A stretch of 25,932 nucleotides of DNA from a virus. The translations under genes and the position numbers were made by a program. Positions 1 to 19,278 of the stretch are shown here, piece after piece; position 1 is the first letter of the stretch, and every line of letters starts with the position of its first letter. The stretch covers positions 1 to 25,932 of IMG/VR virus record IMGVR_UViG_3300037537_000135. One strand, given 5' to 3'. The notes below the pieces were generated by a model. That model had not been told where the DNA came from. It ran no database searches and saw only the letters and a program-made list of their open reading frames with translations.

Positions 1-795
1 CTGTAAAGAATTATCCCATACAGCAGGTATACTCTGACCATCAGCATTGGTCATATACATACGGTCATAAATAGGTTTCATAAAATCATCTATATATTCC
101 TGTGGTAAACCTTTTAGAAGATTAGGAAATGTTTTAATAAAATGATAATTACCAATATATGAATCTAATAGTTTTATTTCAGAAGGAATATTATGTTTAT
201 CTTTAACACTTTTATTAACTACAGAATTATTTTGTAGAGCCTGTAAACCATGCTTCATACCATAAGCATCGTTAATATTAAATTCCTCTCTCGTAAATTT
301 CAGAGCACCACCATCTGTTCTATATTTACTCATTGACTCATTAAAACCATTTACTGCTATCATATTAGCATTTGTATGTGTATTAATAAGATCTGCAACA
401 GGATTTCGATTGCTTGCTGAATAGGCGTCTATCTGTTTTTGATCATAACCTTGTTGAATTAGCCATTGTTTAGTTTCTTCTTTATTGACATCGAATCTCT
501 TCGAGTTAGCCATAAATCCAGGGTCATTCGTAATACCGGCAATAATAGCCGATCTGGTAGTTTGATTATCATCAATAGAATTAATAATAGCCAATGTATT
601 AGAAAAATCATTCTGTAGGTCGTCTCTTTCCATCTTAAGAACTTTGAATTTTGTATCGACCCAATGTTGTCTTTTGTCCTCAGAGAGTTTCTTCTTCTGA
701 AATTCTACAGTTATGGCTCTATCTAAAGATTTCCCTATTTGTTCAGCAAAATTCCAAGGGTTACTCCCTTGGTGCATACTTACATTAACAGCCAT
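1..795 (-). CDS. Virion-associated protein with N-terminal NPWxF motif (3' end cut by window edge)
   Basis: An open frame of 265 codons runs from ATG at 795 to the window edge with no stop, so the C terminus is missing. A very strong Shine-Dalgarno (GAGGAGGT) lies just upstream, which fixes the start. Residues 10-20 read GSNPWNFAEQI, nearly the same peptide that occurs three times in the 760-residue protein at 5622-7904. The visible part is hydrophilic and mostly helical in character, with no signal peptide and no recognised enzymatic motif. It lies downstream of the nozzle-like and S74-module genes. In podoviruses that place is usually taken by large internal (ejection) proteins, so an internal virion protein is the best inference. 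A lytic transglycosylase or other domain could follow outside the window. The product is not recognised by family. Confidence 0.8.
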   Translation of the reverse strand, partial: MAVNVSMHQGSNPWNFAEQIGKSLDRAITVEFQKKKLSEDKRQHWVDTKFKVLKMERDDLQNDFSNTLAIINSIDDNQTTRSAIIAGITNDPGFMANSKRFDVNKEETKQWLIQQGYDQKQIDAYSASNRNPVADLINTHTNANMIAVNGFNESMSKYRTDGGALKFTREEFNINDAYGMKHGLQALQNNSVVNKSVKDKHNIPSEIKLLDSYIGNYHFIKTFPNLLKGLPQEYIDDFMKPIYDRMYMTNADGQSIPAVWDNSLQ

Positions 796-806
796 AATTT
801 ACCTCC

Positions 807-1667
807 TCAGGCAATAGTAAAATTGACATCAAGTTGACTATAATCAACACCAAGAATACCGTTGTGAAGTGTTAAAACCGCTTCAGGTTTCTTTTCTAAA
901 ATTTCCTGGGCTATAACACCTCTATATTTAGTATCATCTCCTATATACTTAAATTCATAAATATTATAACCATCATCTGATACATCAACCTTAACAATAT
1001 CTTCTTTAACATTTTCATCACTCATCATAAATGCGCCTGCGGCAGAACCAATTAAATTACTCGCAAATCCTGCTCTATTTTGACGATTACCTAACTGTTG
1101 ATTATAAGAAGATGTCATTTCATATTGATTCGCTGCGTCTGATCGTGCAGAAGCATCTAACCCAACATCAGCAGATATCTTTGTTAATCCCATTCCCATA
1201 TCACCAACTTGACCGTAAGCCTGTCCTTGCTGACCAAATGCCTGCATTGCTGTACCCATCATTGCCTGTCCCATTTGAGCACCCTGACCTAATAAACTTA
1301 CATTCCCTTGTGCTAATGTTTCACCAGCACCTCTACTTGTAGCCTGTTTAAGTAAACTGGACATACCTCCACCGCCTGCACCTCTTTGAGCCATCATCGC
1401 ACTAATATTCTGCATTTGAGCCTGCGTTTGGTCACCAACATCACCCTGCATCTTCTGTCTCGCTGCTTTTAAATATGGACTATCACCAGAAAATAATGCC
1501 TGAGATTGACTCATTAAATCAGTACCATACTGTCCTACTTGACCAGCATATCTATTTAAATTACTTGCTGACTGGTCAACATATGAACTTTGGTCGTATT
1601 GTGTTGTTGCGGGAGTATAACCAAAATCTTCTTCAAGATTATTTAAACCCAATAATGAATGTAACAT
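807..1667 (-). CDS. Ejection-protein-like virion protein with C-terminal S74-like chaperone module
   Basis: The product has 286 residues and a clear Shine-Dalgarno (AAAGGAGTTAATT-ATG). Residues 1-200 are rich in Gln, Gly, Met, Ala and Ser, with repeated GQ/MG stretches (about 115-160), and look like a helical, non-enzymatic virion protein. A hydrophobic patch (AGFASNLIGSAAGAFMM) precedes residue 216. There a Peptidase_S74 (intramolecular chaperone) signature begins: SDENVKEDI, then YNIYEFKYIGD, GVIAQEI, PEAV and VDYSQLD. In S74 modules the first Ser of this motif and the Lys five residues later form the self-cleavage dyad; here they are S216 and K221. The module is short (71 residues) and ends soon after VDYSQLD. 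Its location after the nozzle-like gene suggests an internal/ejection protein (position of T7 gp14 or P22 gp7), but a fibre-associated role is also possible. Confidence 0.82.
   Translation of the reverse strand: MLHSLLGLNNLEEDFGYTPATTQYDQSSYVDQSASNLNRYAGQVGQYGTDLMSQSQALFSGDSPYLKAARQKMQGDVGDQTQAQMQNISAMMAQRGAGGGGMSSLLKQATSRGAGETLAQGNVSLLGQGAQMGQAMMGTAMQAFGQQGQAYGQVGDMGMGLTKISADVGLDASARSDAANQYEMTSSYNQQLGNRQNRAGFASNLIGSAAGAFMMSDENVKEDIVKVDVSDDGYNIYEFKYIGDDTKYRGVIAQEILEKKPEAVLTLHNGILGVDYSQLDVNFTIA
810..1022 (-). other. S74-like C-terminal module within the 286-residue protein
   Basis: This is the coding segment for residues 216-286 of the protein above. The conserved pattern SDxxxK, then YxFKY, GVIAQE, PEAV and VDYSxL, is seen directly. 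Known S74 modules fold as a trimeric chaperone and cut themselves off before the Ser. Whether this short copy still cleaves is inference. Confidence 0.72.
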
Positions 1668-1669
1668 AA

Positions 1670-1942
1670 TTAACTCCTTTCTTTAAATTTAAAACCTGAT
1701 GCTGTTGTATTGGTACTTTGCACCCATCCCTCATCGGACTTTGCTTCAAGAAAATATTCACCATCTGCATCCTTAATAAACCTTATATCTCCAGTTTTAC
1801 CCTGAGAATCAGGTTTCTCTTCAGTTGTATCACCTTGATTTACAGCATCAATAATTTCATTTATATCAGCATATACCTGTTGAACAATCCTAAGGGTTAT
1901 CGGGTCAGAAACTAAAGGTGCTCTTTTTTTACTTAAAGCCAT
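1670..1942 (-). CDS. Small conserved-looking phage protein of unknown function
   Basis: The product has 90 residues. Its ATG (1942) overlaps the TAA stop of the upstream 1130-residue gene in a TAATG junction, so translation is probably coupled. A helical stretch (about residues 16-36, ITLRIVQQVYADINEIIDAV) is followed by a polar linker. A short beta-like block (about 50-74) contains GDIRFIKDADGEYFLEAK and GWVQS. No Cys, no membrane segment and no catalytic motif are visible. It sits between the nozzle-like gene and the ejection-protein-like gene, so a small tail or neck component is plausible, but no family is recognised. Confidence 0.75.
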   Translation of the reverse strand: MALSKKRAPLVSDPITLRIVQQVYADINEIIDAVNQGDTTEEKPDSQGKTGDIRFIKDADGEYFLEAKSDEGWVQSTNTTASGFKFKERS

Positions 1943-4900
1943 TATCTTATAGCCCTCCTACGATATATAGTTCCTATGGAATCAATACTTTCAGATTCAT
2001 CAGTAATAGTATATTGAATCCATTTTGCTTTACTATTTGTACCACTTAATTTATATTTTGAATTATCTGTATCAGATGAATAAGCATTTGTTACAGAACC
2101 TTTTGATGAAACAATAGTGTCAATAGAATTACTCGTAACACCTCCAATACGGGCAGTCTTAAAGAATTTATCCTGTGTATCCTGTCCCATATTAAGTTTT
2201 TTACTCTTCCAACTATATTTTCTATATTCATCACCATGAGGGTATCGCCAAAGATTGCCATCACTTCCTAAAACCTCCCCAAATTTACCAGCACACATAC
2301 TTGTCCTAGAATTTAATGCTATGCCAGACTCCCAAAGATCCCAACGATTTCTAGGTATACAATATGCCCAACATCGAGGGTCTTCATCAGCATTTCTAAA
2401 AAATATCAAGAATGAATTTCTTTTTGCATCAAACTGAATTATAGGAGTAAAATTCTTTAATGATTTACTTTCCCAATCATCTGGAGCATTTCCTCGAATT
2501 ATTCTATCTCCTATTGGAGTAGGCGATCTTCCATCGTGCATATAAATATTATTTTTATCAGCAAAACACATACCATATTCAGTAACAATTACAGCATCTT
2601 TTCCAATACATCCTACACCTTCAAATGTATCTTCAATATAAAAAGTATTTGGTTCAATTCTATATGTATTATTATCATCAAATGCATATAGACGACCTTG
2701 GTATGATGCCAAACAATTTGGTGCAGTAGGTAATCTTAAAAAATCCATAGTAACATCAAACTGGTCAAAATTATATGGTTTAGACTTGAAAATAAGATTA
2801 GGTGAGTTGTCAGTACCAAATGAAGGATGATAAGCATCACTTACAAAATGATAATTATTCAACTGGGTAGATAAACTATAATTTATCATTGTATCACCAA
2901 GTACCTCTGATATTCCTGTATTCGCTTCATAAGAAGCACCACGCCAATCACCATCATCAATCCATTTTTTCTGTCTATATGTACCAGAAAAAATTGTATC
3001 CGCTGATGTATCAGTAACAGCGGCCCAACTTGAATCTAATGCGAATGTTTTCAAATATCTATAAAACCCCAAAGGTTCAGTTGAGTTTGTACCACCTACA
3101 CCAACATATAGATTTATACCACTTATACGAGGATTTAAAGCAGATATACCTTTAAAATCTAGTATCAACTTTATTTTATTATCATCACCAGCATTAGTAG
3201 GTTTAACTCTCAATAATTCCAATGGTGTTAATGGAGATTCCTGATAACCGTCATATATAAAAGATGCTTTATAATAATAGTATTTAGCAGCATCTAATGA
3301 ACCTCCAGAATTATAATGTACACCAGCAGTTACAGTAAGAAAAGACTCAAGAACACCTACTAATGATGTTAAAGGACCTTTAGCCCATCTACCAACAGTA
3401 CCACCATAAAAAACATGAGCAACAGTACTTGTTCCAAATACACCTCTAGGAGATTCAATTTCACTCGAAGATTGTCTGTTTTCAGAAGTCCATACTGTAC
3501 CATCATCAGTCTCAGAAGTAAGAGGAGTTACTTTATAATAGTCTCCTTGCGTTGCAGTAGATGAGTTTTGAATCCCAAAAAACCCTTTATCGCTATATGA
3601 AGCATTCATATCTACAATAATTTTATCCATATAATCCGTATGATCTTGATTAAATACTACGCAATCTGTAGAATTTGAACCATCTGTTCTGAAATCATGA
3701 CCTCCAACAAAAGAAGCATTAGGAAAATCACTACGAATCATATAACTAAATGGAATACCATAAGTATCACTAGACTTATAAATTCTATGCCTATGTACAC
3801 AATCTCCGGCAACAGCATGTGTACACCCAGTTGTATGAACATAATAATGGTCTATATTTTCTAAATCATCATTACTTGCCTTATGCCCTCTCCCATACAT
3901 ACCAACCCAAGATTTTGTTGAATTAACAGCCATATCTGTTGGTTTATATAAAAATGCACCATCACAGAAACGATGCGGCCAAGACACCCCTGAACCATGA
4001 GAAACATCATTCCAAGCCGAAGGTTGTCCTGACCATTTTATAATAGAACCTACTGCTGTATGAGCAGAACCAGGATCTCCACCACCACCTTCCCACATAG
4101 GAGTATGATTAGTACGAACTATTGCTGTACCGAAAACAGGTCTACTAAACATATAAACATAAGAATTAAGATCTGCCTGTCGACCAGCAATCCAAAATTT
4201 ATCTTCCTGAGTTTTTACATTAATCATATCTACCTCATTCAAATCAGTAAAATTAGAATCAAAAGCGTAATCCTCACTTATCTCAAGAGTATCAGTATCA
4301 ACTTTATATAACTTATGAGCACTTGTACTAGCATCCTTATCTAGCAGATAAAGAAATTTACTATTACTAGTATCATCCATACATATTGTTCGTATATCAT
4401 CCCAATGTTGCCCTGATTTAATGGACAATTTTTGTTTTCCTATATCAAATTTATATAAATAAGTGTCTCCTTTCCGAAAAGCATATATATAATCTCCATC
4501 AGTTTTCACTTGAGAAAAATGTGGAAATGGTGAAGGTGTATTAAGTTCAGCCTGTGCTACCTGTAATCCATCAAAAGTCGTCAAGAATTGTTTAGTATTT
4601 ATATGACCAACCCATTGCGGAGCATCTAGGACAGCACTTCCTAAACCAATATGAACTTCCTCATTATTCTTTTCCATACAATATTTATCATCAGTATTAT
4701 TTAAGGCAGAACTTGTTAATGTTTCATCATGTGTAGGAGCAGACGCATATAAATTCTTAACAACTTTAAATTCATCATCATCTCTATCGAAATAAACTAA
4801 ATCGTGTTTTCCATCCTTATTCATCAGTACCATTTCATCAGCCTTTACAGAGTCTACATTTGCAGATACAGTATTAAATTCCCATTTTTCATTTATTAAA

Positions 4901-5334
4901 TGATCCGATAATGCACCAAATTTAACCTGCACTTCACCAACAGTCTGCCAATTAGTTATACCTGCTTGAGGACCACCAAATGTAGTTGTAGTTACACCGC
5001 CATCAGTACTATAAGTAAATGTATCCCCTCCTTGGTGTTGTGCAGTACAATTTATAGTATATGTTCTATCTCTATTATTCCATCCTTTGTATGTTTGGGC
5101 AGAAAGGTCATTATGTTGCTGACCCCCAGGAGATGTGTATGTAATACTGGATATTGTAACCCCGCCATCAACATCAAGAAATAAATCATTTGGTATTGGT
5201 CTCAGTTTTCCTTCTTCAGCAACTGGGTCAACATTTTTACTATAAACAGCAGCATCATCAGGTACATCTGACTCACTTGGAGTCGATATCACACCTGCAT
5301 GGAATTGCTTTATTTCGTGTACTTCTTTAGGCAT
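1942..5334 (-). CDS. Large nozzle-like (beta-propeller type) tail protein
   Basis: The product has 1130 residues and is the largest protein in the window. The N terminus (IKQFHAGVISTPSESDVPDD, then SKNVDPVAEEGKLRPIP) follows the opening seen in podovirus nozzle and tail-tube proteins of the T7 gp12 type: a GG/GV-I-P turn, an N-x-D segment and a G-x-L-R-P segment. The body is a long run of short beta strands with many Tyr, Trp, Asp and Gly turns. Near residues 870-930 there is a propeller-like blade (CLASYQGRLYAFDDNNTYRI). It is much longer than T7 gp12 (about 790 residues) or P22 gp10 (about 470), so it may include extra insertions or a spike function. It starts in a TAATG overlap with the 94-residue gene upstream. 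The family assignment is by pattern, not by search. Confidence 0.7.
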   Translation of the reverse strand: MPKEVHEIKQFHAGVISTPSESDVPDDAAVYSKNVDPVAEEGKLRPIPNDLFLDVDGGVTISSITYTSPGGQQHNDLSAQTYKGWNNRDRTYTINCTAQHQGGDTFTYSTDGGVTTTTFGGPQAGITNWQTVGEVQVKFGALSDHLINEKWEFNTVSANVDSVKADEMVLMNKDGKHDLVYFDRDDDEFKVVKNLYASAPTHDETLTSSALNNTDDKYCMEKNNEEVHIGLGSAVLDAPQWVGHINTKQFLTTFDGLQVAQAELNTPSPFPHFSQVKTDGDYIYAFRKGDTYLYKFDIGKQKLSIKSGQHWDDIRTICMDDTSNSKFLYLLDKDASTSAHKLYKVDTDTLEISEDYAFDSNFTDLNEVDMINVKTQEDKFWIAGRQADLNSYVYMFSRPVFGTAIVRTNHTPMWEGGGGDPGSAHTAVGSIIKWSGQPSAWNDVSHGSGVSWPHRFCDGAFLYKPTDMAVNSTKSWVGMYGRGHKASNDDLENIDHYYVHTTGCTHAVAGDCVHRHRIYKSSDTYGIPFSYMIRSDFPNASFVGGHDFRTDGSNSTDCVVFNQDHTDYMDKIIVDMNASYSDKGFFGIQNSSTATQGDYYKVTPLTSETDDGTVWTSENRQSSSEIESPRGVFGTSTVAHVFYGGTVGRWAKGPLTSLVGVLESFLTVTAGVHYNSGGSLDAAKYYYYKASFIYDGYQESPLTPLELLRVKPTNAGDDNKIKLILDFKGISALNPRISGINLYVGVGGTNSTEPLGFYRYLKTFALDSSWAAVTDTSADTIFSGTYRQKKWIDDGDWRGASYEANTGISEVLGDTMINYSLSTQLNNYHFVSDAYHPSFGTDNSPNLIFKSKPYNFDQFDVTMDFLRLPTAPNCLASYQGRLYAFDDNNTYRIEPNTFYIEDTFEGVGCIGKDAVIVTEYGMCFADKNNIYMHDGRSPTPIGDRIIRGNAPDDWESKSLKNFTPIIQFDAKRNSFLIFFRNADEDPRCWAYCIPRNRWDLWESGIALNSRTSMCAGKFGEVLGSDGNLWRYPHGDEYRKYSWKSKKLNMGQDTQDKFFKTARIGGVTSNSIDTIVSSKGSVTNAYSSDTDNSKYKLSGTNSKAKWIQYTITDESESIDSIGTIYRRRAIR

Positions 5335-5618
5335 TATATTTTTTTCTTATATGCATAATTTTTTATTGTATTATATTTATAATCACTATGTTTACCGCCA
5401 AATCTTTTAATAGACCTGTCTATTGCCCTATCACCGGGAGTCATTAAACCACGAGTAGTACCTTTAATAGTAACAGTACCATCTTCATTAAGGTCACCTC
5501 GTTTTGTTAAAATACGCTTTGCTAAATGTTCAGCATCTTCATAGGTATAGTTTTTACCCTTCCTATCTAGTAACTGACTGGTTAGTCTATTTAATATAGG
5601 TATATTATCTTTACTCAT
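5334..5618 (-). CDS. Small basic phage protein of unknown function
   Basis: The product has 94 residues and is strongly basic, with a Lys/Tyr-rich tail (SDYKYNTIKNYAYKKKI). A central segment, KGTTRGLMTPGDRAIDRSIK, looks like a conserved core. The SD-like AGGTAAGG stands directly before ATG 5618. The stop overlaps the start of the nozzle-like gene (TAATG), so the two are likely co-translated. The basic charge would suit nucleic-acid or head-tail contact, but that is inference; I do not recognise a named family. Confidence 0.75.
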   Translation of the reverse strand: MSKDNIPILNRLTSQLLDRKGKNYTYEDAEHLAKRILTKRGDLNEDGTVTIKGTTRGLMTPGDRAIDRSIKRFGGKHSDYKYNTIKNYAYKKKI

Positions 5619-5621
5619 ACC

Positions 5622-7904
5622 TTACCTACTTAATATAGTATCTATAAACATAGGACTTTGCTGATTGATTTCAGCAACATATTGTCTTATATTATTCATT
5701 CTACTTTTATTTGACATATTACTTAAAACATTTGCATTTATCATTCCAGTATTATTTCCAGTATTGCTTGGAAAAGTAAATTGTTGTGCATCGCCACCTT
5801 GTTGAATTTGTCCACCTTCCTGATATTTACCAAATTTATGTCTTAATCTTTTTAATATTCCAGGCTTTTTAGGATAGTGTTGTCTATTATCTTCCATCAT
5901 ATTAACATCATATTTGTCACGCAATGATACATTCCTTTTTTCTTCACTCATCTGGATCATCTCATCTAATGATGGTCTTTCTTCGTTAATTCTATTTTGT
6001 TCCAATGCTTCATTGATTTGGGCTTCATATGGATTTTGTTGCCCTACCGCTTTATTTTTTTGTCTAACTGGGTCTATATAATAATCTTCACCAGTTACAG
6101 GCATGGGAACGACTTCTTCAGCCTGGAGTTGTCTATAACCTGATTCGGTAGGTATATTTGATTGAAATTTGTCTTTTCCTGCCTGCCATGCTTCTCTATC
6201 ATCAAACCAACTTAAACCTTGTTTTTTTGCTTCAACATCCCAAGCAGATTGACCAGTCTTACTATCGTATTTTCTTCGTTCTGCAAATTTTCCTCTAACA
6301 TTTTCCCTGAGTTTAAAGTCTGCATCATATTTTTTCAACCCTTCCTCTTGCTTCTTTTTAAAAGCATCTACTTTTTCGCCCATGTCTCCTGTATCTAAAA
6401 GACTCATTAAACTTGCTCTTGAATATTTTTCTCCAGACCCTGTCTTACCTTCCACATTTTTCAAAGAAGTTTCCAAATTTCTTGTTGTTCCCTGTTTTTC
6501 AGCCATTAATTTTGCCAATGTAGCCTTATTCGCCTCATCTGCAATTTCAGACTTCTTATCAAACCCAGCCCCCATATCCTTTCGGTCTTGAAGATAGCCC
6601 TTAATCCAATCTTTACTTTTACTAATCTGTTCATGAACACCAGACTCAGCAGCCTCCTTCCTATGCCTGTCTCTCTCCACTTTATCGAGGCGTGCCTCTC
6701 CCTCTTTTTGAAGCATCCCTTGTGCTTGTGCATCAAGTTCTTTTCTGGTACCATAAACAGGTGTAACTGAATCAGTTTCTTCATCATATGCTGTATCTAG
6801 TTGGTATTTTCTGTTTACTGTTTTTCCAGGTGTATCAGAGAAACCCCTTTCCCTATCTATTTTCTCTTGTGTAATCATAGATTGTTGGTCTTGAAGACCT
6901 GCTTGGAATGATTCTTCCCTAAATTCTTTTTCTAATCTTTTGGTGTTTGCTCTTTTTGATTTATAATCACCTAAAGCACCTTTTATTTTAGAAAACCAAC
7001 CTTTTTCTTCTTCTTCTTTAGGACCTTTAAGCCAATCTGGACCGTCATCATCCCGTAATTCTTTCATCATTAACGCATTTTGTATAGAAGAACCAAAACT
7101 CCAAGGATTAGATGACGATTGCTGTGCTACCACGGAATCACCAGTGCCATATTTAGGTATTTCACCTCCATAATTGAATTCTCCAGATAGTTCATTTCTT
7201 TGCTTTGATAAAGAACCAAGTTCATCAGACCAATATCCTTCTTCCTGTCCTTCCATTAAAGAATTGATTTGATTCTGTACAGACTGTAAATCTTGTGGAC
7301 TATCGTCAGCAGGTTGATTAACAATATTTGGATTTAATTCTTGAACTGGTGTTTCAATTGGTTGATTAAGATCAGGTGCATCCTCGCCTCCACCAGCAAT
7401 ATCAGAAGGTTCTTCTGTAGCAACAGATGGTTCATTTTTCTTTTTTGCTTTTGCTGCTGCTGATTGAATTTGTTGACCAAATCCCCAAGGATTAGACCCC
7501 TGTGCCTGAACAGGACCACCAACTTGCATTAATGGTTCTTCTAAGAAATTCTTTTCACCTCTTGTACTTGCATCAGTCTCTGGATATAACTCATTACCAA
7601 CATAATTTGCCCACTCAATAAGAGGTCCTGCAAACTTCATTGCCCCCTTACTTGCAATAAATTCCCCACCTTCGGCTTCCAATTGGTTTAGCATACCATT
7701 CTTAACTTTGATATTTACACCACCATTATCATGACTAGGTCCATAAATTCGACCTCCCTTTTTAGCACCCATAGCGGCCATTTTAACCACATCCATCACC
7801 TTATCTTTTCCTTTCTCCGCCGCTGCTGCTACTTGCTCTCCAAAACCCCAAGGATTTTGTGCTTGATCCTGAACCGGACCACCAGTATTATATTTCCAAG
7901 CCAT
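5622..7904 (-). CDS. Large motif-repeat virion protein with three NPWxFG boxes and a GPSH/EAEGGEF module
   Basis: The product has 760 residues, preceded by the SD GGGAG seven bases before ATG 7904. Three boxes occur: NPWGFG at residues 17-22 and 138-143, and NPWSFG at 266-271. Each lies a short way after a GG-(P/E)-x turn (TGGPVQ, VGGPVQ, YGGEIP). A fourth GG turn (EGGQIQ) lies near the C terminus without the box. Residues 50-82 carry GGRIYGPSHDNGGV and EAEGGEFIASK, a motif seen in many phage structural proteins whose function is unknown. Residues 290-640 are highly charged and helical, with many Lys/Glu/Gln, as in a rod-like or internal protein. No enzyme motif was found. It sits between the lysis genes and the nozzle-like gene. 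An internal virion or scaffold-like packaging function is inferred. The left-edge gene shares the NPWxF box. Confidence 0.78.
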   Translation of the reverse strand: MAWKYNTGGPVQDQAQNPWGFGEQVAAAAEKGKDKVMDVVKMAAMGAKKGGRIYGPSHDNGGVNIKVKNGMLNQLEAEGGEFIASKGAMKFAGPLIEWANYVGNELYPETDASTRGEKNFLEEPLMQVGGPVQAQGSNPWGFGQQIQSAAAKAKKKNEPSVATEEPSDIAGGGEDAPDLNQPIETPVQELNPNIVNQPADDSPQDLQSVQNQINSLMEGQEEGYWSDELGSLSKQRNELSGEFNYGGEIPKYGTGDSVVAQQSSSNPWSFGSSIQNALMMKELRDDDGPDWLKGPKEEEEKGWFSKIKGALGDYKSKRANTKRLEKEFREESFQAGLQDQQSMITQEKIDRERGFSDTPGKTVNRKYQLDTAYDEETDSVTPVYGTRKELDAQAQGMLQKEGEARLDKVERDRHRKEAAESGVHEQISKSKDWIKGYLQDRKDMGAGFDKKSEIADEANKATLAKLMAEKQGTTRNLETSLKNVEGKTGSGEKYSRASLMSLLDTGDMGEKVDAFKKKQEEGLKKYDADFKLRENVRGKFAERRKYDSKTGQSAWDVEAKKQGLSWFDDREAWQAGKDKFQSNIPTESGYRQLQAEEVVPMPVTGEDYYIDPVRQKNKAVGQQNPYEAQINEALEQNRINEERPSLDEMIQMSEEKRNVSLRDKYDVNMMEDNRQHYPKKPGILKRLRHKFGKYQEGGQIQQGGDAQQFTFPSNTGNNTGMINANVLSNMSNKSRMNNIRQYVAEINQQSPMFIDTILSR

Positions 7905-9350: not shown

Positions 9351-10219
9351 TATGCAGTCTTCCAAATTTTTATCCAGTCGACATCACTATATGCTCCACC
9401 AGTCATATACCTTGCTGATAGGAATCTAATTCCTGCTCCACTTGGGAAAAAATCTTGGTAGGTCGTAGATGTAGTTGATACCGCTGAAGTTCCATTGCAA
9501 AATATAGTCAGCGTTCCATCATCTTCTATGGTAATTTTTGCAGTAGTCCAAGCACCCTTAGTAAATTTTCCACTACCGCTCGTAGCAAGAGTCGAGATGC
9601 TACTATAAGAATCTCTTCGTCTAATACGAACCGCTTGAGTGTTGTCATAGAATTGGAAATGATAACCATTATCTAAGCCACCGGATACAGCCCAACCATT
9701 ACCTTGCGATATTGCCTCTACATACAGAATTAAATCTTTATTGTTGCTACTAGACATAAAGAAAGAGAATTCAATATTAATCGTTCCAGAGCCAGTTTTT
9801 AAATCTTCAGGGGGTACATTAGTATTCCTCCATTGAGCATGATAAGTAGAATCATTAGTATTGCTCATTCTAATTCTATCATTGGATTCGTGTGATGTAC
9901 CAGTTGAAGATGCGAATGTCCATACAGGTCGTGTTGTAACTACATTACTATCACTATCTGTCGGAAATTCTTGACTATCTTGCAATTCTGTAGTCGCATA
10001 GGTTATTCGTCCATCCGTTGGGTCGTCACCGCCTGTAGTATGGAAATCGTCTACGAACATACCACCAAGAGCGGCGGTTACCTCATAAGAAGTAAACCAT
10101 TTAGTCCCATCGTACACAGACACTTTTACATCTTGCCAAGCAGAACCATCGTATCTCTTAATTGATTGAGGTTCGACCCAAGCAATTCCATTATATACTT
10201 TTAGTGGATTAACAGCCAT
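9350..10219 (-). CDS. LamG/concanavalin-like fibre or receptor-binding protein
   Basis: The product has 289 residues. The N terminus holds three short repeats of the form Y-(N/D)-G-x-x-W: VYNGIAW, RYDGSAW and VYDGTKW (about residues 8-14, 22-28, 35-41). Residues 50-289 are beta-rich and look like a concanavalin A/LamG sandwich: FVDDFHT opening, INIEFSFFM, GYHFQFYDN, WTTAKITIEDDGTLTIF and a closing SDVDWIKIW. LamG-like domains of this kind bind sugars or form the tip of phage fibres. It starts in a TAATG overlap with the 118-residue fibre-like gene. The fold is read from pattern; the ligand is unknown. Confidence 0.72.
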   Translation of the reverse strand: MAVNPLKVYNGIAWVEPQSIKRYDGSAWQDVKVSVYDGTKWFTSYEVTAALGGMFVDDFHTTGGDDPTDGRITYATTELQDSQEFPTDSDSNVVTTRPVWTFASSTGTSHESNDRIRMSNTNDSTYHAQWRNTNVPPEDLKTGSGTINIEFSFFMSSSNNKDLILYVEAISQGNGWAVSGGLDNGYHFQFYDNTQAVRIRRRDSYSSISTLATSGSGKFTKGAWTTAKITIEDDGTLTIFCNGTSAVSTTSTTYQDFFPSGAGIRFLSARYMTGGAYSDVDWIKIWKTA

Positions 10220-10575
10220 TAGTATTCAATCCAAATATCGCCTGTAGATGGAGAACCACCAGCGGCGGCATCATCAACAGTAACATTATCTAAATCTTCA
10301 ATAGATATTGTTATAGCAGAACTACCATTAAATGAATTTCCTGCTATATTTCTAGAAGTCGCTAAAATTGTAGCAGTTCCTGCATTACCCGAAACAGTTG
10401 TTTGTGTTATGTTCGGACTATCACAGGTCGCAGTAATACTACTTTCTGCATTTACTGCACTAACAGCATTTGCATTAGTATAGTTATTTGCATCTGTATA
10501 TGTTGTAGATATACTGCCACTAGATATATCACTAGCCGCTACTGCTCCTTCCTGAAGCACTTTTTTCCAAGCCAT
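10219..10575 (-). CDS. Short tail-fibre-like protein related to the 539-residue fibre
   Basis: The product has 118 residues and begins MAWKKV, as does the 539-residue fibre at 11201-12820. Residues 63-91 (GNAGTATILATSRNIAGNSF, then NGSSAITIS) are one copy of the T4-gp37-like fibre repeat also found in tandem in the larger fibre. The end, PSTGDIWIEY, resembles the G-D-x-Y/W cap at the ends of the neighbouring fibre proteins. An SD (CGGAGTG) lies upstream of ATG 10575. It looks like a mini-fibre made of an N-terminal cap, one repeat and a C-terminal cap. It could be a real short appendage or the remnant of a recombined fibre. Confidence 0.75.
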   Translation of the reverse strand: MAWKKVLQEGAVAASDISSGSISTTYTDANNYTNANAVSAVNAESSITATCDSPNITQTTVSGNAGTATILATSRNIAGNSFNGSSAITISIEDLDNVTVDDAAAGGSPSTGDIWIEY

Positions 10576-11200: not shown

Positions 11201-12820
11201 TTAACTAGGGTTGCCAATATAGAGATTGGAACCATTCCAATAAAGCATTCCTTCAACCTCTGTTGTAGGCTCACTCTGAGTATTTAATACTAATCCATTC
11301 ATTCTACAATCAGCATATGTACCACCATCTGACACATTGTTATTACCAGTAGGCGTATTAGTAGCATTACCAGTCATAAACTTGAATCCTCCGGCGGCGG
11401 TACCAACATTAATGATTCTTCCAGTAGATGTTGCACCAGTTGAATCACCAAATACTATCGCACTAGCAGAATCACCAAAAGCAGATTCGCCATCAGCAAC
11501 ATTCAACTGAATTGATGTATCAGTAAATGATGTATTCGCACTATTGATTGTAGTTGTCGTACCTTTGACATCTAAATCACCAGTAAGAGTAACTTTATTA
11601 GCAAATGTCCAAGTCTCATCATCTAAGAGGTTTTTTAGGTTTGTAATAGATGTAGTACCAGTACCACCATAAGCAGCATCTACTGTGTCACCTCTCCAAG
11701 CACCTGCCGTTATTGTTCCAACTGTTGCCAAGGCCGCCGCAGAAGTAATTGCTCCTTGAGTTGCCTGTGTTGTGGCTGTGTTTGGAGCAAGACCAGCAAT
11801 CGTTGCTACGGTACCTGCTTCACCAGTTGTATCGGCTGCATTGTCAGGAATAGAACTGCTAACTAAAGAAATATTTGCGGAACCATTAAATGATACTCCA
11901 CCAATAGTTCTTGCAGTTGCTAAGATTGTTGCAGTTCCTGCTAAGCCGACTGCAATATTTGCTGTACCATCAAATGATGTTCCACCAATTGTTCTAGCAG
12001 ATGCTAAAGCCGTTGCTGTTGCAGCGAGTCCTGAACAAGATGCTGAACTTCCACTTGCATTTCCTGTAAGAGCACCAACAAATCCAGTAGCGGTTATCTT
12101 ACCAGTACTTGGATTGTATGTACAAGTTCCGTCTGATTCTAAGGCTATGTTACCTCCATCTATATCTCCACCTGATGTAAAAATAAGAGCGTTAGACTCA
12201 TTCGTGCTTTCATTATCTGCAATACTTACTTTTGCTGCCACTGTAGCCGTTGCTGAATTACCTGTTGAATCAGCGTTGGCCGCCGAAACACCTAAAACAG
12301 TTCTTGCAGCACTAGCATTTGCAGCGGTAACTAATCCAATCATTGGAGCAGTTGAAGAACCTGTACCACCATCTAATACTGCAACATCTGTACTACCCTG
12401 TACATAAACAGCCTTACCCTCAACGCTTAGTACTCCACTAGAACCTGTAAGTGTTGTATCACCTGCACTACCTACATTAAGACCAGCGAACTGAGGACTA
12501 TCATCAGTATCTATACTAAGACTAGCCCTTGTTGCAGCAGATCCAGCCGCTTGAAATGTAGGGGCAGCACCAGCACCGTTACTTGTTAAAACATGGTCAT
12601 TGGTTCCTACCGCTACCCTAGCGGGATCACCAGAAGCATCCCATGTAATTAATTCTCCATCTGTTCCTGTTGTAATGTGAACTAAATCAATACTGCCATC
12701 CACATAGTCGGCAGAATCAATAGAATTCGTTAGATTTAACTTAGAGTAAGCAATCGCTGCTGAGCCATTAATATCAGCATTAACGATGTCACCACTAAGT
12801 GTTACTTTTTTCCATGCCAT
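11201..12820 (-). CDS. Tail fibre protein with T4-gp37-like repeats
   Basis: The product has 539 residues of low-complexity Ala/Thr/Gly/Ser fibre sequence. The MAWKKV start is shared with the 118-residue gene. The order is: N-terminal strands with DGELITWDASGDPARVAVGT (about 54-73); SPQFAGLNVG (108-117); LDGGTGSS (149-156); a perfect tandem of 28-residue fibre repeats at 264-291 and 292-319 (GLAxTATxLAxARTIGGxSF form); YGGTGTTSITNLKNLL (about 385-400); LTGDLDVKGTTTTINSANT; and an end cap, EGMLYWNGSNLYIGNP. These are typical trimeric fibre elements. The protein probably forms the shaft of a receptor-binding fibre. No chaperone module is present at its C terminus. The antisense strand is open for 211 codons, an effect of the Ala/Thr composition. 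Confidence 0.85.
   Translation of the reverse strand: MAWKKVTLSGDIVNADINGSAAIAYSKLNLTNSIDSADYVDGSIDLVHITTGTDGELITWDASGDPARVAVGTNDHVLTSNGAGAAPTFQAAGSAATRASLSIDTDDSPQFAGLNVGSAGDTTLTGSSGVLSVEGKAVYVQGSTDVAVLDGGTGSSTAPMIGLVTAANASAARTVLGVSAANADSTGNSATATVAAKVSIADNESTNESNALIFTSGGDIDGGNIALESDGTCTYNPSTGKITATGFVGALTGNASGSSASCSGLAATATALASARTIGGTSFDGTANIAVGLAGTATILATARTIGGVSFNGSANISLVSSSIPDNAADTTGEAGTVATIAGLAPNTATTQATQGAITSAAALATVGTITAGAWRGDTVDAAYGGTGTTSITNLKNLLDDETWTFANKVTLTGDLDVKGTTTTINSANTSFTDTSIQLNVADGESAFGDSASAIVFGDSTGATSTGRIINVGTAAGGFKFMTGNATNTPTGNNNVSDGGTYADCRMNGLVLNTQSEPTTEVEGMLYWNGSNLYIGNPS
11864..12031 (-). repeat. Tandem 28-residue fibre repeats
   Basis: Two adjacent copies encode residues 264-291 and 292-319 of the large fibre. 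They share the pattern G-L-A-x-T-A-T-x-L-A-x-A-R-T-I-G-G. A third copy is found in the separate 118-residue gene (its residues 63-91). The pattern is that of gp37-type fibre repeats in T4-like phages. Confidence 0.85.
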
Positions 12821-18498: not shown

Positions 18499-19278
18499 TT
18501 ATGGGATTTTCGAACCAAACCTATTACCAGCACCCATGATTTTATCCCAGGTCTTTGCACCATCATCCTGTATAGGTTGATGTGCTTGTCCTTGGAGCAC
18601 GCCTGCTGATTTAGGTATTTTTTGATTCGACTTAATTTTATTAATACCACTATTACCACCTGCTGGTTTTTGTTCTTCCGACCAAACTTTAACAAGTGTA
18701 TCTAAAGGTAAATTACCCCGAGGAGTAGTAGCAAAATCCATAAAATTACGGATCTCGCCCTCATCCATTTGATAATTAGTCTTTAACTCTTTCACGGTAT
18801 TATTCATGACCATCTGATTATTCATTTGGTTCATGTGGTGCTGAATCGCTGTGTCCATTCGTTCAGTATCTTGATACTCTCTGAATTTCCACGATGGCGA
18901 ACCAGGCTTGTAATAGGCATCCCAAGGACTAAATTCTTCCTCAGAAGGTATATCCAAATCTGGAGCATCATTCCCCTGTCCTGCCTGTTGAGTCTGTTGC
19001 GTCTCCAACTGCTTCATAAGAACTTCCTGCATTTTAGAATTTTCAGCCTGTGATTTATCATACATTGACTGAAATTTCTTTGCTTCATCTTCCCATGCTT
19101 CATGTGAAGTCTCAGATTCAACATCTTGCACAGGAATTTCTTCAAAACCTTCCGGTGCGACATATTCTTGCTGAACTGGTTCCTGATACTCTCCTACTGG
19201 AGTACCACCTTCCTCAATTACATCTTGGATAGGGTTTTCTAATTGCACTTCTTGTGCATCTTGGAGTTGTTCTTCCAT
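18499..19278 (-). CDS. Scaffold (capsid assembly) protein
   Basis: The product has 259 residues and is very acidic in its first 60 residues (EEQLQDAQEVQLENPIQDVI and onwards). A Gln/Glu/Lys coiled coil follows (about 60-98: DEAKKFQSMYDKSQAENSKM). Then come a Trp/Pro segment (FSPWDAYYKPGSPSWKF, about 116-132), a helical middle and a small basic C terminus (KIMGAGNRFGSKIP). Acidic plus coiled coil plus basic C terminus, located between portal and capsid genes, is the standard scaffold profile. SD AAGGAGAAAATA precedes the ATG at 19278. No protease domain is seen, so the scaffold is probably reused rather than cut. Confidence 0.87.
   Translation of the reverse strand: MEEQLQDAQEVQLENPIQDVIEEGGTPVGEYQEPVQQEYVAPEGFEEIPVQDVESETSHEAWEDEAKKFQSMYDKSQAENSKMQEVLMKQLETQQTQQAGQGNDAPDLDIPSEEEFSPWDAYYKPGSPSWKFREYQDTERMDTAIQHHMNQMNNQMVMNNTVKELKTNYQMDEGEIRNFMDFATTPRGNLPLDTLVKVWSEEQKPAGGNSGINKIKSNQKIPKSAGVLQGQAHQPIQDDGAKTWDKIMGAGNRFGSKIP

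What the first reader, a model, noticed from the sequence alone, without database searches (positions are those of the whole stretch)
748..7856. NPWxF peptide repeated in two different virion genes
The peptide NPW(G/S/N)F with flanking Ser/Gly and a following (G/A)xx(I/V) occurs three times in the 760-residue protein (residues 17, 138, 266) and once at the N terminus (residue 12) of the left-edge gene, which is otherwise unrelated. In the larger protein each copy follows a GG turn (GGPVQ, GGPVQ, GGEIP). This looks like a docking peptide that several virion proteins share for one common partner, such as the portal, the adaptor or an inner-capsid core. An ejection-protein packaging tag is the most attractive reading. 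To my knowledge it is not a described motif. The copies and their positions are seen; the docking role is inference.
Basis: partly seen in the sequence, partly recalled or inferred. Interest (0 to 1): 0.72.

Follow-up and report, generated by a model that had tools for sequence, protein, structure and literature searches.

The report
Shared tag on phage injection proteins
Two otherwise unrelated genes of an uncultivated phage, one of them very probably for a protein injected into the host, carry the same short tryptophan peptide, and a distant relative keeps it in both genes, so it is probably an address tag that brings proteins into the assembling head, although no binding partner has been shown.

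Summary
In detail: NPWxF[G/A]xx[I/V] lies at residues 17, 138 and 266 of the 760-aa protein and at residue 12 of the left-edge protein. It is not chance: 228 of 20,000 shuffles of the window's proteins gave even one NPWxF, none gave more.

The window is a fragment of a SU10-like short-tailed phage. By gene order the left-edge gene matches SU10 gp23, a demonstrated ejection protein. The role of the 760-aa protein is unknown. Only one relative (G015, major capsid protein 67% identical) has both genes. It keeps the motif in both (SPWDF, NPWNF), although the rest of each protein has diverged almost beyond recognition. That supports a functional peptide.

No motif-bearing sequence of this family turned up elsewhere. 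However, short aromatic repeats (NPFDQF x2, NPFAQF x2, LFxxxNLI x3, PYxxYLxR x3) recur at the very N-terminus of the last ejection protein in several other phage lineages. In two of these the neighbouring ejection protein has a look-alike copy. The scaffolding proteins of this phage group carry an invariant F[N/D/S]PW[D/E]A.

Best reading: a recruitment peptide for internal proteins, more likely read by the scaffold than by the portal (P22 precedent). Partner and role in packaging remain inference.

The parts
1..795 (-). Left-edge gene (265 aa seen, cut by contig end); probable ejection protein, syntenic with SU10 gp23; G015 homologue 660 aa
748..762 (-). NPWNF copy, residues 12-16 of left-edge protein, start of a predicted helix
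   Evidence: helix start only in a low-confidence AF2 model
5622..7904 (-). 760-aa protein with three motif copies; first ~290 residues without predicted structure, then charged helices
   Evidence: pLDDT 35, low confidence
7842..7856 (-). NPWGF copy 1 (residues 17-21)
7479..7493 (-). NPWGF copy 2 (residues 138-142)
7095..7109 (-). NPWSF copy 3 (residues 266-270), aligned with NPWNF of the G015 homologue
7590..7757 (-). GPSH...EAEGGEF domain (residues ~50-105) lying between copies 1 and 2; in G015 it is in a separate upstream gene
5625..5687 (-). Conserved C-terminal peptide (ends QSPMFIDTILSR) of the 760-aa protein, the main link to the G015 homologue
807..1667 (-). 286-aa protein with C-terminal S74 chaperone domain; matches PHROG DNA-ejection/structural families, match confined to the C-terminal part
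1942..5334 (-). Nozzle-type protein (1130 aa); anchor for synteny
   Evidence: only PDB profile match is a phage nozzle, E=0.44
18499..19278 (-). Scaffolding protein candidate between portal and major capsid genes
   Evidence: position, relatives
18913..18933 (-). FSPWDAY motif of the scaffold; F, P, W and A invariant in 17 aligned relatives

Best explanation
NPWxF[G/A]xx[I/V] is a short recruitment (docking) peptide on internal, ejected proteins. In the left-edge ejection protein a single copy sits at the N-terminus, where a helix probably begins. In the 760-aa protein three copies lie in a flexible N-terminal arm, which would give multivalent binding. The copies are bound during head assembly by one partner, most probably the scaffolding core or the surface that the scaffold's own F[N/D/S]PW[D/E]A segment contacts, so that both proteins are carried into the procapsid near the portal axis. 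Shown: the copies, their non-randomness, and retention in both genes of one diverged relative. Inferred by synteny: the left gene is an ejection protein. Inferred only: that the 760-aa protein is internal, that the motif binds anything, and what it binds.
For: The motif is non-random. A profile of the four window copies finds, in the whole G015 gene set, only the two syntenic genes (E=0.0014 and 0.0025; next G015 hit 2.3). Window versus G015 left gene: the first 35 residues score 63 against 17.5 +/- 3.8 shuffled (0 of 300), whereas residues beyond 35 are near chance (17 of 300). SU10 gene order is lysis - gp16 - nozzle gp17 - ... - gp22 - gp23 - gp24, and gp20-24 are in the virion but gone from the release intermediate (PMC9509320). 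Independent analogues: tblastn with made-up aromatic NPxxxF peptides against 50,697 phage records returned few hits, and three of them fell on the first residues of ejection-type genes: NPFAQF x2 on a DSL-LC05 'DNA transfer protein', NPFDQF x2 on Shewanella ZP9, NFFDQF/NYFDQF on a 'DNA injection protein'. A motif-free scan of 586 proteins for N-terminal self-repeats put those and three kinds of giant ejection-type protein (G002/G005, L244, L259) on top, apart from a portal artefact. In ZP9 and DSL-LC05 the best second copy lies at residue 10 or 18 of the neighbouring gp20-like ejection protein (NPMDAF, DPLAQY); ZP9's is a PHROG 2534 member, 'released from the phage upon host infection'. P22 needs scaffold, not portal, to take ejection proteins in.
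Against: Only two genomes hold the two-gene sharing. No partner was tested and no complex predicted. The G015 last ejection-type protein has no N-terminal motif copy. P22 and T7 ejection proteins have no such motif. N-terminal [NDST][PV]W is not enriched in related phages (9 seen, 14.6 expected). The second copies in ZP9 and DSL-LC05 rank first by score but do not exceed the shuffled maxima. Scaffolds of ZP9, DSL-LC05 and Aeromonas 4_4512 lack the ejection motif. The analogue queries were written from memory of such repeats, so that part is not blind.
Confidence: 0.42

Rival explanations
1. The motif is a helix N-cap plus amphipathic helix that belongs to the protein's own fold or to its membrane/channel-forming part after ejection; it recurs because it is a good helix start, not because it docks to a common partner.
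For: NP before a helix is a classical cap (general knowledge). The left-gene helices are strongly amphipathic (0.0015 of shuffles as high in both genomes). The low-confidence model starts a helix at residue 11 of the G015 protein.
Against: The 760-aa copies are not significantly amphipathic (0.11 to 0.83 of shuffles), yet keep NPWxF. Trp and Phe identity is kept, which capping alone does not need.
Confidence: 0.23
2. The motif works after ejection: ejection proteins bind each other through it when they build the channel beyond the nozzle, as T7 gp16-N acts as a tape on gp15.
For: Precedent in T7 (PMC8954989); two proteins carry it; P22 ejection proteins affect each other's incorporation.
Against: Nothing here separates pre- from post-ejection binding; gene position gives no reason to think the 760-aa protein is ejected.
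Confidence: 0.15
3. The 760-aa gene is an external tail part, because SU10's short tail fibre gp16 lies at the same place between lysis and nozzle genes, and the motif attaches it and an ejection protein to nozzle or adaptor.
For: Position match with SU10 gp16; its MAWK start resembles the fibre genes of the same phage.
Against: No fibre or receptor-binding family match, charged helical rather than beta-rich composition, three motif copies in an arm.
Confidence: 0.1
4. One mini-module was copied by recombination between the two genes and internally; the sharing reflects history with no common partner.
For: Copies 1 and 2 share GGPVQxQ..NPWGFG and look like an internal duplication; a GPSH domain sits between them.
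Against: Copies differ at DNA level (33-40 of 78 bases identical between the left-gene copy and the three 760-aa copies) and the motif survived in both genes of a relative in which the rest diverged.
Confidence: 0.1

Closest known systems
T4 capsid targeting sequence (CTS) of internal proteins IPI-III and Alt
   Same: A short N-terminal peptide shared by several otherwise different internal proteins, for entry into the head core (PMC5694885).
   Different: Different sequence; the CTS is a propeptide cut off by the prohead protease, whereas two of the copies here are internal and no protease gene lies between portal and major capsid genes.
SU10 (Kuravirus) ejection proteins gp20-24
   Same: Same morphogenetic gene order and protein classes; the left gene is syntenic with gp23.
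   Different: SU10 proteins lack NPWxF; gp24 has only a KPWEEA near its N-terminus.
P22 gp7/gp20/gp16 ejection proteins
   Same: P22-type portal with a charged, probably helical C-terminal tail in the window; ejection proteins cluster near the portal barrel and are brought in with scaffold.
   Different: No shared N-terminal peptide in P22.
Tandem NPFxQF N-termini of gp16-like DNA-transfer proteins (DSL-LC05, Shewanella ZP9, Aeromonas 4_4512)
   Same: N-terminal, repeated, aromatic NPxxxF peptides on an ejection protein, with a look-alike on the neighbouring gp20-like protein in two of the three.
   Different: Different spacing (one residue more between the two aromatic residues), no homology of the carrying proteins shown; no literature found for these peptides.

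Membership tests
T4-type capsid targeting sequence | Short peptide shared by non-homologous internal proteins | tested here: inconclusive
   Sharing by two otherwise unrelated proteins shown; internal location inferred for one by synteny, unknown for the other
T4-type capsid targeting sequence | N-terminal propeptide removed by a prohead protease | tested here: not met
   Copies at 138 and 266 are internal; no protease gene between portal, scaffold and capsid genes; cleavage itself not testable
T4-type capsid targeting sequence | Directs proteins into the head | not testable with these tools
   needs packaging assay
SU10-like (Kuravirus-type) short-tailed phage | SU10-type major capsid, SU10-type adaptor, P22-type portal, nozzle, in SU10 order | tested here: met
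   Pfam SU10_MCP 8.7e-25, P22_portal 4.9e-37, SU10_adaptor 6e-5 but below its curated cut-off; order as in KM044272
Ejection protein (left-edge gene) | Gene in the block nozzle - gp14-like - middle - giant protein | tested here: met
Ejection protein (left-edge gene) | Sequence match to a known ejection family | tested here: not met
   no PHROG, Pfam or meaningful PDB hit
Ejection protein (left-edge gene) | Present in virion, released on infection | not testable with these tools
   uncultivated phage
Ejection protein (760-aa gene) | Position in the ejection block | tested here: not met
   lies before the nozzle, at the place of SU10 short tail fibre gp16

The most novel reading that the evidence does not exclude
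Short-tailed phages use a lineage-specific 'address code': a short aromatic N-terminal peptide, often in tandem, carried by different ejected proteins of one phage. In this lineage it imitates the invariant F[N/D/S]PW[D/E]A segment of the scaffolding protein, so that cargo and scaffold use one pocket during head assembly.
Probability: 0.2. Interest if true: 0.8.

Novelty: new variant of a known kind. Interest (0 to 1): 0.52.

Why it matters
How short-tailed phages put their few ejection proteins into the head is an open question: they resist sequence comparison and are mostly unresolved in cryo-EM. A short peptide shared by different internal proteins would be a simple handle on which proteins are packaged and by what. 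It would let ejection proteins be recognised in uncultivated phages where homology fails, and could serve as a loading tag. The repeated N-terminal peptides on last ejection proteins of several lineages make the question testable in cultured phages such as Shewanella ZP9 or Aeromonas 4_4512.

Tried and rejected
Relatives of the 760-aa and left genes in annotated phages: none. Viral-contig scans with both proteins, the nozzle, the 760-aa C-terminus and the left N-terminus found only G015 as a carrier; genome contigs gave nothing. Anchoring on the lysis gene brought 80 loci with other tail modules and no NPWxF. General enrichment of PW at N-termini: rejected. Loose NP[WFY]x[FILM] motif in related phages: 5 in 1448 proteins, too few to test. 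AlphaFold models: pLDDT 44 and 35, too poor for fold search, which was not run. PDB sequence search for peptide or proteins: nothing useful. Ejection-motif copies in the scaffolds of ZP9, DSL-LC05 and Aeromonas 4_4512: absent. Sharing of the tandem repeats with a second gene in L259, G002, G005, ctvy9321 and Aeromonas: not found. Literature for NPWGF/NPWNF/NPWSF/NPWxF and NPFDQF-type strings: none.

Full report
Observation. The window is a 25.9-kb virus record. The left-edge ORF (1..795, minus strand, cut by the contig end) reads MAVNVSMHQGSNPWNFAEQIGKSLDRAI; the 760-aa ORF (5622..7904, minus) has NPWGFGEQV at 17, NPWGFGQQI at 138 and NPWSFGSSI at 266. Coordinates match the finding exactly. 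In 20,000 within-protein shuffles of the 32 window ORF products, 228 gave one NPW.F and none gave two or more, against four observed. A profile of the three 760-aa copies finds the left gene at E=2.7e-5, and the window's second-gene match scores 39 against a shuffled maximum averaging 20.5 with a highest value of 30. Outside the motif the two proteins show no similarity.

What the phage is. The major capsid matches Pfam SU10_MCP, the portal P22_portal, the 467-aa protein weakly SU10_adaptor, and the lysis gene M15-type endolysin families. The order terminase, portal, scaffold, capsid, adaptor, fibres, lysis, 760-aa gene, nozzle, small protein, 286-aa protein, left gene matches SU10 (KM044272: gp5 to gp24). 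SU10 gp22, gp23 and gp24 lie where the 286-aa gene, the left gene and (in the relative G015) a 1892-aa gene lie. SU10 gp20-24 are in the virion and missing from the genome-release intermediate, hence ejection proteins (PMC9509320). So the left gene is very probably an ejection protein. The 760-aa gene sits where SU10 has its short tail fibre gp16 but looks nothing like a fibre; its role is open.

The relative. One 53-kb contig (G015, IMGVR_UViG_3300030419_001062; major capsid 67%, lysis protein 80%) has the same gene order. Its 569-aa gene before the nozzle is the counterpart of the 760-aa gene, with the same MAWK start, an almost identical C-terminus (QSPMFIDTILxR) and SSNPWNFANI at 75; a degenerate copy NTSVWGGISNAGDAI lies at 24. 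Its 660-aa gene at the left-gene position starts MAVQQQAGRSPWDFADSIESAVNNAID. For the left gene the first 35 residues are conserved (score 63 against 17.5 +/- 3.8 shuffled, 0 of 300), while the remainder is near chance (17 of 300). For the 760-aa gene the 440-residue middle is weak (7 of 300) and the C-terminal 25 residues are 15/25 identical. The peptide is therefore among the best-kept parts of both genes. This is the strongest evidence that it does something. It rests on two genomes only.

How far it extends. NPWxF occurs in 1 of 77 related viral records scanned. Scans anchored on the nozzle, on the 760-aa C-terminus and on the left N-terminus brought back only G015 as a carrier, so orthologues are too few for a real conservation test. 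In G007 the middle ejection-type protein starts ...GYRDPWAEAVKSV, and its gp14-like protein starts MANGGYNPFTFATGL. These are suggestive, but PW at N-termini is not enriched overall (9 seen, 14.6 expected).

Analogues in other phages. tblastn with invented aromatic peptides against the phage collection gave few hits, and three fell on the first residues of ejection-type genes: MAENPFAQFAAQPAQSDNPFAQF (DSL-LC05, 'putative DNA transfer protein', after a gp7-like and a gp20-like gene), MANPFDQFDAQQENPFDQF (Shewanella ZP9), MANFFDQFDEQDKQQRAAERNYFDQF (ctvy9321, 'DNA injection protein'). Aeromonas 4_4512 has NPFDQF at 3 and 128, separated by inserted sequence, as the GPSH domain separates copies 1 and 2 here. 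A separate scan that knew no motif, 586 proteins tested for self-repeats in the first 80 residues, ranked on top, besides a portal artefact, only last ejection-type proteins: DSL-LC05, ZP9, G002/G005 (NLFEGVxLIDE x3), L244 (DFFxxINLVDEE x3) and L259 (PYxxYLxR x3). DSL-LC05 and ZP9 were already in hand because of the motif search; the other four loci were not. In DSL-LC05 and ZP9 the best second copy in the phage lies at residue 18 or 10 of the neighbouring gp20-like protein (DPLAQY, NPMDAF), positions with a chance of about 0.5% each, though the scores themselves do not exceed shuffled maxima. ZP9's neighbour matches PHROG 2534, 'released from the phage upon host infection'. P22 and T7 have no such peptides. 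No paper in the library mentions the NPW or NPF strings.

A possible partner clue. The scaffold of the window carries FSPWDAYYKP. In an alignment of 17 scaffolds of this group, F116, P118, W119 and A121 are invariant (F[N/D/S]PW[D/E]A), the densest conserved patch of the protein. In the window and G015 the short list of [NDSGT]PW proteins is: left gene, 760-aa/569-aa gene, scaffold, and three others in all. By a rough estimate from residue frequencies, about two such tripeptides would be expected by chance in the window, so the overlap is a lead, not a result. In P22 scaffold is needed for ejection proteins to enter the procapsid and portal is not, and the scaffold column is proposed as their docking site (PMC4992974, PMC12005531). 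This shifts the most likely partner from portal or adaptor to the scaffolding core.

Mechanism, with status. Shown: peptide, numbers, positions, retention in two genes of a relative. Inferred from gene order: left gene is ejected. Inferred from analogy: recruitment during head assembly, multivalent in the 760-aa protein. Unknown: partner, and whether the 760-aa protein is inside the head. The main rivals are a helix-capping or amphipathic element of the proteins' own function (the left copies are strongly amphipathic, the 760-aa ones are not), binding between ejection proteins after release, an external tail role of the 760-aa protein, and simple copying of a mini-module.

Limits. Structure models were too poor to use (pLDDT 44 and 35). 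Complexes could not be predicted with the tools. The analogue queries were chosen from memory of such repeats, so only the repeat scan is blind.

Noticed in passing
window 18913-18933 (-), scaffold; relatives L002, L009, L018, L082, L084, L103 and others: Scaffolding proteins of this group share an invariant F[N/D/S]PW[D/E]A(Y) patch followed by P.S.S, the most conserved part of the protein; role unknown.
   Followed up: partly
L272:2914-7422(-), L273:11293-15804(+), L244:11390-14023(+), L259:9816-12881(+), L279:6001-7956, L280:6004-8175: The last, largest ejection-type proteins of several unrelated phages begin with two or three copies of a short aromatic peptide whose sequence differs between lineages.
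   Followed up: partly
window 10219-10575, 11201-12820, 5622-7904 (-); L166:2551, 4642, 11094: Three genes of the window and three of G015 start with MAWK; two of the window ones are tail-fibre-like. A second shared N-terminal peptide, possibly a fibre attachment signal.
   Followed up: partly
window 807-1667 (-) versus L166:16139-17302: The same virion protein ends in an S74 self-cleaving chaperone domain here and in a weakly matching Hint-like domain in G015: two different self-processing C-termini on one gene.
   Followed up: no
window 7590-7757 (-); L166:9338-11092; L170:2430-2831; L174:5860-6285: A GPSH..GG..EAEGGEF domain sits inside the 760-aa protein here, in a separate 584-aa gene in G015, and in small proteins after the capsid gene in other relatives.
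   Followed up: partly
window 5625-5687 (-): The C-terminal peptide QSPMFIDTILxR of the 760-aa protein is nearly identical in G015 although the middle has diverged; a second candidate binding peptide.
   Followed up: partly
window 5334-5618 (-); L044:7094-7321; L050:871-1098: The 94-aa gene next to the nozzle has relatives (about 50% identical) that lie next to the terminase gene in other contigs; weak DUF5442 match.
   Followed up: no
L181:1037-11398: A nozzle-type ORF of 3453 aa, about three times the window's, with the conserved C-terminal part.
   Followed up: no
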